Shown piece after piece: positions 41,614 through 43,960 of a stretch of 44,053 bases of DNA (position 1 is its first letter; each line of letters starts with the position of its first letter). The position numbers and the translations under genes were made by a program. The notes under the pieces were generated by a model, which had not been told where the DNA came from, did not search any database, and saw nothing but the letters and a program-made list of their open reading frames with translations. The DNA is from Thiobacillus denitrificans. Its GTDB lineage: Bacteria; Pseudomonadota; Gammaproteobacteria; Burkholderiales; Thiobacillaceae. Location: contig DYFW01000007.1 of NCBI GenBank assembly GCA_020725005.1, forward strand, positions 1 through 44,053, in the 5' to 3' direction.

Positions 41614-43242
41614 TTATTTCTGTTGGCCAGATGCGCCAGGTATGCTGGACCGCCCCTTCATCACACTTAGCGCGACGCATGCTCCCATTGACTTCATGTC
41701 ACATGCATGTTCGAGGTCTGACATCGCCAGGTGGATATCCCCCTTGTCCCGATAGATCAAACCGCGCAAAGTAAAGCTAAATGGATCTTCCGGGAAGAGC
41801 GCAACGAAGGCATTCGCGTCACGCAGCGCGGATTCGAAGTCACCCAATTTTGCGTACGCAAAAGCACGGCCGGTGTATGCCCCCTTAAATCGGGAATCTG
41901 CACGCAATGCGCTTGTGTAGTCTGCGACCGCTGCATGCAGATCGCCCCCCTTCACGTTCCAATTACCCCGGTTTGCATAGACCCTCGCCACACCCGTCAC
42001 CTGTTCCTCGGGTAATTTCCGCACCGCATCGTCCCACAACGCATATCCACCGGAAAAGCTCTTCAGTCGATCACTGGAGGCATACGCAAAGGCGAGCGTA
42101 ACGCCCAGAATGATTGGCCAAAACAGCTTGTTAGGGAGATTGCGGCTTACCACGGGCACCAGCAGGAACAGAGGCCACATCCACAAATAGGTGCGATACA
42201 AGACGAAGGGCTCCTGAACTTTCACCGTGGAGAACTCCACCGCAAACAGCAACCATGGCGCAAGCAATGCAAACCCGACCAGACCGCGTCGACCGCCTTT
42301 CAGCAACAGGAAAACCGCGCCCAGTCCATAAATCGCGAATGCAGCGATCCCCAGCACATATTTGGTCTCCCAGATTTGCGTCGCAATCGGCACGCGCATG
42401 TCGACCGACATCCAGTCCGGGTTGGGAATCAGTATCAAACCGAGGTACTTGAAGAACAGCGATGCCTGCGTCATGGCGCTCAGCAACCAGATCAGGCCGG
42501 TGCCGGTCGCCTCAGCATCAATCTGAACCTGCGCTAACTGCTGCACGGCATGCGGCTCGTATATCCTGCCGACGACGGACAGGCTGTTAAAGATAACAAG
42601 CACTGCGATCGGCATAAACAGCGCAAAGGGCAGCACCAGGCGCTTCCATGTCTGGGCATTGAAACGCTCTGCCAGAGGCGTGAGCGCCAGTGCAACGGCA
42701 GGAATCAGGACGGCATGCTCCTTACTGTATGCAGAAAGTAGATAAAACAGCCCCGAGAAGAAAAAATAGGCTTTCTTGCGGGTCACCAGACCATTGAAAT
42801 AGGCACTCAGCGACAGCAAGCCAAACAGCGTCGCCATGAGAATGGTGCGCTGAACCATATAGCCGACCGCATAGACGGCCAGCGGGTGCAGCAGAAAAAG
42901 CAACGCAGCCGCGACGGCAGCACGCTCGTTGTTGCGGTGCGGCGCAACATGGCTGCTTATCTGCCTGATGAGGGAATACAGTCCAAACGCGGTCAGCGCA
43001 TGCAGGCCGACATTTGCGCTGCGTTGTGCGAAAACCCCGTCCTCGAAGACAAGGTCAAGCCAGGCCATCGTGACATAGGGCAACCAACGTAGGTGGAATG
43101 GATTGCCGTCGAGAAAAACGGCATGGATGCCGTACTCGAAAAAATTGATGTCGTCGAAGAAGGGCGCGTAGTGCAGCGAAGGCCAATACAGACCAAAGGC
43201 GCAGAGTGTCAGCAGTTGGAACGTGATCAAGCGCATGGGCAT
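41614..43242 (-). CDS. TMTC-like multipass membrane/TPR protein, putative pilin glycosyltransferase
   Basis: A 542-residue protein with about ten hydrophobic helices in the first 390 residues and TPR-like helices in the last 130 (AVADYTSALRADSRFKGAYTGRAFAYAKLGD, then a second pair). An Asp-Asp pair (residues 30-31, HYAPFFDDINFFEYG) in the first external loop is the position of the catalytic acidic motif in GT-C enzymes, including the TMTC O-mannosyltransferases, whose layout is the same. It is encoded downstream of a type IV pilin gene, so pilin glycosylation is plausible, but unproven. No SD is seen, and ATGs at 43242 and 43236 are both possible. Its base composition is clearly less GC-rich than the flanking core genes, suggesting acquisition. 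Confidence 0.65.
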   Translation of the reverse strand: MPMRLITFQLLTLCAFGLYWPSLHYAPFFDDINFFEYGIHAVFLDGNPFHLRWLPYVTMAWLDLVFEDGVFAQRSANVGLHALTAFGLYSLIRQISSHVAPHRNNERAAVAAALLFLLHPLAVYAVGYMVQRTILMATLFGLLSLSAYFNGLVTRKKAYFFFSGLFYLLSAYSKEHAVLIPAVALALTPLAERFNAQTWKRLVLPFALFMPIAVLVIFNSLSVVGRIYEPHAVQQLAQVQIDAEATGTGLIWLLSAMTQASLFFKYLGLILIPNPDWMSVDMRVPIATQIWETKYVLGIAAFAIYGLGAVFLLLKGGRRGLVGFALLAPWLLFAVEFSTVKVQEPFVLYRTYLWMWPLFLLVPVVSRNLPNKLFWPIILGVTLAFAYASSDRLKSFSGGYALWDDAVRKLPEEQVTGVARVYANRGNWNVKGGDLHAAVADYTSALRADSRFKGAYTGRAFAYAKLGDFESALRDANAFVALFPEDPFSFTLRGLIYRDKGDIHLAMSDLEHACDMKSMGACVALSVMKGRSSIPGASGQQK

Positions 43243-43329
43243 GTGCCAAAATCCGGGGCGACCAGAGTTTGTGTAAACGGGGTTTCGGTTAATGCTGAGG
43301 CATTCTGTCCTCGAACTGGATAGCAAACC

Positions 43330-43484
43330 GGTTCGGCGCGGCCTACCAATCCCGGATCGGCATGGTCCTTCGGCTTCCCCCAGATTCGCAGTAGCCCGCG
43401 GCACCCTTGCCGTTTGGCTAACTCTCCCCTTGCAGGGCAAGTAGAGGATTTCACCTCCAAGTAAGTGCGCCCTGCCGGGCGCAC
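43330..43484 (-). mobile_element. 5' remnant of a group II intron
   Basis: Reading the minus strand from 43484, the sequence begins GTGCGCCCGGCAGGGCGCAC, a typical 5' end and first hairpin of bacterial group II introns. It continues with the domain I hallmarks ACTTGGAGGTGAAATCCTCT, GTTAGCCAAACGGCAAGGGTG and GAATCTGGGGGAAGCCGAAG. It starts one base after the T-run of the pilin terminator, the insertion preference of class C introns. No reverse transcriptase frame or domain V follows; the TMTC gene starts about 240 bases downstream, so it is a truncated copy. The right-hand end (43243-43330) is unclear. Confidence 0.75.
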
Positions 43485-43519
43485 CAAAAAACGAAGGCCC
43501 CTCTGCTGAGGGACCCTTC
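43485..43519 (-). terminator. Rho-independent terminator of the pilin gene
   Basis: On the minus strand GAAGGGTCCCTC pairs with GAGGGGCCTTC (one bulge) around AGCA, followed by GTTTTTTG. It starts 32 bases after the pilin stop and is a strong intrinsic terminator. Its T-run abuts the group II intron remnant. Confidence 0.88.
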
Positions 43520-43551
43520 AGACGACCTGGGCTTAACCCAGGTGTACTGGA

Positions 43552-43896
43552 TTAGGGGTGGGTGCAAACTCCCGTTGCGATATCACATGTGATTTGAGTA
43601 GTGGCCCTATCACGAGCGTTAGCCGTAAGGTTTGCGTTCGGGAGGGCGTTGGTATTTGTGTAATTTGCGTTGGTGCAAGCAGAGTACTGGGGGGCAGGAA
43701 GCAGAGCCGTACTATTGTCCGCAATGGCGGCGACCACGCCGCGCGCGATGCCGGTCATCTCTGACTGGCAGGCGCGAACACGCGAACGGTCCGTATAGGT
43801 CTGGTACGCCGGCAGCGCGATCGCCGCCAGAATGCCGATGATCGCGACGACGATCATCAGTTCGATCAGGGTGAAGCCCTGTTGCGCTTTTTTCAT
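43552..43896 (-). CDS. pilA: Type IV pilin (PilA/PilE-like)
   Basis: A 114-residue prepilin. The leader MKKAQQG is cut by prepilin peptidase before [33 protein letters not shown], the canonical N-terminal helix with Glu5. The small globular part has a Cys pair near the C-terminus (TCDIATGVC) and an Asn/Thr/Ala-rich centre with potential O-glycosylation residues. The second of two adjacent ATGs (43896) is preferred because it has better spacing from AGGAG. It is transcribed from a sigma-54-type promoter and followed by a terminator, with a TMTC-like glycosyltransferase candidate beyond. Confidence 0.92.
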
Positions 43897-43960
43897 CATT
43901 TCATTTCTCCTAGGTAATGGATTGGGTCCAACAGGTCTCCCTGTCTTGGCACATTAACGT

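What the first reader, a model, noticed from the sequence alone, without database searches (positions are those of the whole stretch)
43243..43519. Truncated group II intron behind the pilin terminator
The minus strand shows a terminator hairpin with a T-run and, one base later, the hallmark 5' end and domain I motifs of a group II intron, with no reverse transcriptase and no domain V. Class C introns are known to insert just after terminators. The fragment sits between pilA and a low-GC glycosyltransferase-like gene, so it may mark where the pilin-modification gene was acquired or rearranged, and it could shape expression of that gene.
Basis: partly seen in the sequence, partly recalled or inferred. 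Interest (0 to 1): 0.72.

Follow-up and report, generated by a model that had tools for sequence, protein, structure and literature searches.

The report
Scar of intron fused to transposon
Behind a pilin gene lies a short dead remnant of a self-splicing mobile intron fused to a remnant of a DNA transposon, which looks like ordinary mobile-element debris sitting where this class of intron is known to land.

Summary
Half right. On the minus strand, directly after the pilA terminator, 43484-43367 (118 nt) is the 5' end of a group II intron. It is 88-90% identical to the best relatives' copies, including an annotated intron with ltrA in Azoarcus sp. KH32C. An intact relative (L067) encodes an RT closest to the class C GsI-IIC RT. 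Of 42 related 5' ends chosen for a T-run, 41 also follow a hairpin. Group IIC is therefore well supported. The rest of the interval is not intron: 43368-43255 matches the 3' end of IS256-family elements (last transposase codons with an internal stop, then the right inverted repeat). The pieces share 2 bases (GG) at the junction, so this is most likely a deletion scar. The held assembly shows no domain V and no group II RT. Seven distinct relatives have the pilA/TPR-gene pair with a terminator and neither element, so the scar does not mark acquisition of the downstream gene. Rfam misses the fragment because its D1 model starts near intron nt 86. New instance of known biology; low interest.

The parts
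43552..43899 (-). pilA-like type IV pilin gene, 115 aa, upstream of the scar
   Evidence: ORF; Pfam N_methyl E 6e-11
43486..43517 (-). intrinsic terminator of pilA: 10-pair stem 43517-43494 plus T-run; probable insertion target of the intron
   Evidence: terminator scan; fold z -4.05 for 43484-43545
43367..43484 (-). 5'-terminal 118 nt of a group II (IIC) intron, 3'-truncated
   Evidence: 88-90% identity to intact or longer introns; intact relatives have Rfam D1-D4 and D5 hits and an RT
43367..43368 (-). junction: GG shared by intron and IS (2-bp microhomology)
   Evidence: intron alignments end at 43367, IS alignments begin at 43368
43255..43368 (-). 3' end of an IS256-family element: last transposase codons with an in-frame TAG, original TAA, right inverted repeat; outer end about 43255 (inferred)
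   Evidence: 14 match rows; sequences; alignments and translation; transposase family of L014
41614..43242 (-). downstream TPR-containing protein gene (542 aa), starting about 12 bp after the IS end
   Evidence: ORF, Pfam TPR, orthologues next to pilA

Best explanation
A group IIC intron once inserted behind the pilA terminator, an IS256-family transposon landed in or next to it, and a deletion then joined intron nt ~118 to the last ~110 bp of the IS, removing the rest of both (order of events inferred). What is left is a non-functional scar between the pilA terminator and the start of the TPR gene. The 118-nt piece lacks the rest of domain I, domains II-VI and the RT, so it should neither splice nor move. 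The pilA terminator is intact. Shown: the two homologies, the junction, the terminator, the empty arrangement in relatives, the absence of intron machinery in the held assembly. Inferred: the order of events, and lack of function.
For: Intron side: best matches E 2.8e-42 to 4.9e-39, 90.0% over 118 of 119 nt to an Azoarcus sp. KH32C plasmid locus with annotated ltrA, RF02001, RF01998 and RF00029 hits. L067, an RT-bearing relative (80% identical at its 5' end), has D1-D4 and D5 and an RT scoring 397 bits to GsI-IIC RT against 130 bits for LtrA. Terminator habit: 41 of 42 distinct T-run + GTGCGCCCGGCA sites in the loci held have a perfect stem of at least 5 pairs before the T-run, against 29% after shuffling. 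IS side: 14 rows; the transposase of L014 is IS256 family (430.7 bits, cut-off 150), and the matched DNA is its last codons plus the terminal repeat. No row spans the junction. Relatives: 7 distinct pilA/TPR-gene spacers with a terminator and neither element on inspection; the four whole genomes among them (G034, G053, G011, G005) gave 0 matches to the scar.
Against: The fragment itself hits no Rfam group II model (explained by the model's start). No intermediate (intron with this IS beside it) was found. The assembly is in 388 contigs, so a missing intact copy could lie in a gap. The outer end of the IS (about 43255) and the lack of a target duplication rest on reading degraded sequence. Class IIC is inferred from relatives; the fragment lacks the regions that define the class. 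A hairpin-plus-T pattern is partly built in, since the 42 sites were chosen for the T-run.
Confidence: 0.94

Rival explanations
1. The whole 43484-43243 stretch is intron.
For: The 5' part is intron.
Against: None of 65 other match rows spans 43368/43367; the second part matches the coding end and terminal repeat of IS256-family elements, while intact introns continue differently after nt 118.
Confidence: 0.01
2. The remnant has been put to use, for example its first hairpin as a 3'-end stabiliser of pilA mRNA, or the fused segment as the leader or an in-frame N-terminal extension of the TPR gene.
For: The first intron hairpin is intact; the TPR gene frame is open back to a TTG at 43440, through both remnants.
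Against: Absent from the 7 relatives' spacers; internal stop in the IS piece's own frame and substitutions fit decay; no sigma-70-like promoter found; the open frame may be chance in GC-rich DNA.
Confidence: 0.04
3. Half of a split (trans-spliced) group II intron.
For: It is a clean 5' end with a break inside domain I.
Against: No domain V in the held assembly and no RT; no exon function, as it follows a terminator; the break abuts an IS remnant.
Confidence: 0.01

Closest known systems
Group IIC introns inserted after intrinsic terminators (Azoarcus sp. KH32C plasmid pAZKH copy, L128; GsI-IIC RT as nearest solved RT of relative L067)
   Same: 5' sequence, position directly after a terminator hairpin and T-run
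   Different: Only ~118 of ~1,880 nt (L128 3001-4878) remain; no RT, no domains II-VI; fused to an IS
3'-truncated bacterial group II intron fragments, as described for RmInt1 and relatives (passages of PMC5894124)
   Same: Loss of the 3' end including the IEP, 5' piece kept
   Different: Much shorter piece than FRE652 (652 nt), class C instead of RmInt1-like, breakpoint abuts an IS256 remnant
IS256-family insertion sequences (L014 as example)
   Same: Last transposase codons and right terminal repeat
   Different: Only ~114 bp remain, with an in-frame stop

Membership tests
group II intron | 5' end GUGYG and domain I sequence homologous to known group II introns | tested here: met
   118 nt at 88-90% to introns with Rfam D1-D4 and D5 and ltrA
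group II intron | domain V | tested here: not met
   no RF00029 match in the window or held assembly: a fragment, not an intron able to act
group II intron | intron-encoded RT/maturase (for mobile members) | tested here: not met
   no TIGR04416 match in the held assembly
group IIC (class C) intron | insertion directly after terminator hairpins | tested here: met
   own site; 41 of 42 T-run sites in held loci
group IIC (class C) intron | class C RT and IIC-type D5 in the same lineage | tested here: inconclusive
   RT of relative L067 closest to GsI-IIC RT; the fragment's own RT and D5 are gone
IS256 family | IS256 transposase | tested here: inconclusive
   only the last ~26 codons remain; the parent-type transposase of L014 passes NF033543 (430.7 bits)
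IS256 family | terminal inverted repeat | tested here: met
   right end CGTTTACACAAA... shared with L008-L010, L012-L015, L018; its complement at the left end of L014. Left end not present in the window
IS256 family | target-site duplication | not testable with these tools
   left end of the element is deleted

The most novel reading that the evidence does not exclude
Class C introns may erode from one side only: the terminator on their left is under selection, so deletions that survive remove the 3' end and leave a terminator-fused 5' stub whose first hairpin persists, and such stubs may build up as a second hairpin behind terminators across these genomes. The window's scar and three further sites in the same genome (contigs C97, C311, C243) would be examples.
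Probability: 0.15. Interest if true: 0.35.

Novelty: new member of a known kind. Interest (0 to 1): 0.15.

Why it matters
It is a clean worked example of a group IIC intron landing behind a terminator and then being reduced to a stub by a deletion involving an IS. It also shows that Rfam's D1-D4 models can miss short 5'-end intron relics because they begin about 85 nt into the intron. Beyond that it is ordinary mobile-element debris, and it removes a wrong reason for thinking the neighbouring gene was recently acquired.

Tried and rejected
Rfam on the window at gathering thresholds gave no match; at E up to 10 on 43100-43600 it gave three sub-threshold matches (ctRNA_pGA1 E 0.047, ftsZ-DE 0.7, BjrC68 1.7), which I take as chance hits on GC-rich tandem hairpins.

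I considered a special bias towards 5'-only intron relics. Of 43 domain V match rows in relatives I fetched 20 regions. Seven were cut short by contig ends, and 13 were examined: an RT motif was seen in 3 and a convincing 5' end in 1 (L127). So 3'-side remnants lacking a recognised 5' end exist too. My 5'-end pattern is crude and would miss other intron families. I do not claim a bias.

Whether short post-terminator stubs (about 20 nt, at contigs C97 and C311 of the own genome) are intron remnants is likely but not proven: Rfam finds no group II match there (L071 and L072). The DNA matches are only 26-27 nt (E 6.6e-5 and 4.3e-4). The C243 site resembles a second intron lineage by eye only. L130 among the 42 sites diverges from intron sequence after the motif and may be no intron; L132 had no stem. 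A search for IS256 in the own genome found another copy on contig C212, but the scar's DNA does not match it, so it is not the parent.

Not followed: the weaker homologues of the TPR gene (L042-L060) and most of the 103 plasmid records with matches (two loci, H1 and H4, were opened).

Full report
What was claimed.

What is there. The minus-strand order is pilA (43899-43552), a terminator-like hairpin with T-run (43517-43486), GTGCGCCC... from 43484, and the start codon of a TPR-protein gene at 43242. A DNA search of 100 genomes (the window's own and 99 relatives) found matches in 28 of 100, own genome included. The 66 match rows fall into two blocks. Apart from the window itself, 51 rows lie inside query positions 18-154, 14 lie inside 153-271, and none crosses. 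The feature is therefore two unrelated pieces joined at 43368/43367. Alignments put the intron piece at 43484-43367 and the second piece from 43368 onwards, with GG common to both.

The first piece is intron. Its best copies are 88-90% identical. One is on the Azoarcus sp. KH32C plasmid pAZKH, where ltrA, a group II intron reverse transcriptase/maturase, is annotated 290 bp further on, and where Rfam finds group-II-D1D4-3 (136 bits), group-II-D1D4-1 (57 bits) and Intron_gpII (49 bits). Reading that locus, the intron runs from 3001 to about 4878, so the window keeps about 6% of it. In the relative L067 the same 5' end (80%) is followed by D1-D4 and D5 hits and an open RT frame that passes TIGR04416 (349 bits, cut-off 300) and matches GsI-IIC RT (397 bits) much better than LtrA (130 bits). 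RF02001 begins at intron nt 85-86 in these copies, which explains why Rfam reports nothing for a 118-nt piece.

Position. Among the loci held I collected 42 distinct sites with a T-run and GTGCGCCCGGCA; 41 of 42 have a perfect stem of at least 5 pairs before the T-run, against a mean of 29% after shuffling the upstream bases. The T-run was part of the selection, so only the hairpin is a test; L130 may not be an intron and L132 fails. The pattern read backwards gave far fewer matches in the same 100 genomes (matches in G019, G027 and G078 only, against 18 genomes for the pattern). A review states that IIC introns insert at intrinsic terminator motifs and that most bacterial copies are truncated and many surrounded by other mobile DNA (PMC4424553, passages). 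[quoted passage not shown]

The second piece is an IS256-family end. In L014 the matching DNA is the end of a transposase gene that passes NF033543 (430.7 bits, cut-off 150) and PF00872. Eight such loci share the coding end, the stop and the terminal repeat CGTTTACACAAA.... In the window this piece has an in-frame TAG before the original TAA, so it is decayed. Its outer end is at about 43255, some 12 bp before the ATG of the TPR gene (inferred by eye). Only L014's transposase was tested; the other loci were judged by DNA likeness.

No machinery left. The held assembly (388 contigs, 99% complete) has no domain V match (101 of 101 candidates scored), no group II RT match, and no RF02001 match. 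Other possible 5' stubs lie on contigs C97, C311 and C243, each after a T-run.

Relatives. Eight loci with an orthologous TPR gene were read upstream (L033-L036, L038-L041); L035 and L039 print the same sequence, leaving seven. All seven have a pilin gene, then a terminator-like hairpin, then the TPR gene, with no intron or IS piece on inspection; the four whole genomes G034, G053, G011 and G005 had no match to the scar at all. In G053, G011 and G005 recA and recX lie next to the pair as in the window; in the others they were not seen. So the gene pair was in place without the intron, and the scar is a later event in the window's lineage (inference from absence in relatives).

Mechanism and verdict. 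The simplest course is insertion behind the terminator, arrival of an IS, and a deletion with 2-bp microhomology that removed the 3' part of the intron and the 5' part of the IS. The order is inferred. The product should be inert. It is a new instance of well-known decay, of low interest. The boldest reading left open is that terminators shield intron 5' ends, so that class C introns wear down to terminator-fused stubs; my limited check of domain V loci (13 examined of 43 rows) gives it no support, as 3'-side remnants also occur.

Noticed in passing
G000 contigs C97:3648-3674 (-), C311:3608-3633 (+), C243:2920 onwards (+); L003, L002, L158: Three further possible group II intron 5' stubs in the same genome, each after a T-run with a hairpin; C243 looks like a second intron lineage. 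No domain V in the assembly.
   Followed up: partly
window 43440-41614, minus strand: The TPR gene frame is open back to a TTG at 43440, through both remnants, so a 66-residue in-frame extension is formally possible; probably chance.
   Followed up: no
G000:C212:65-1017 (L172, L173): An IS256-family transposase gene elsewhere in the genome, in two frames of the search output; not a DNA match to the scar.
   Followed up: no
G014 contigs C12, C15, C45 (L065, L066, L070): A relative with several intron 5' fragments with partial D1 hits and no domain V match found in the genome: many truncated copies.
   Followed up: partly
window 41614-43242: The TPR gene next to pilA has homologues beside pilins in relatives, but Pfam gives only TPR repeats; its role in pilin modification is unsupported here.
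   Followed up: partly
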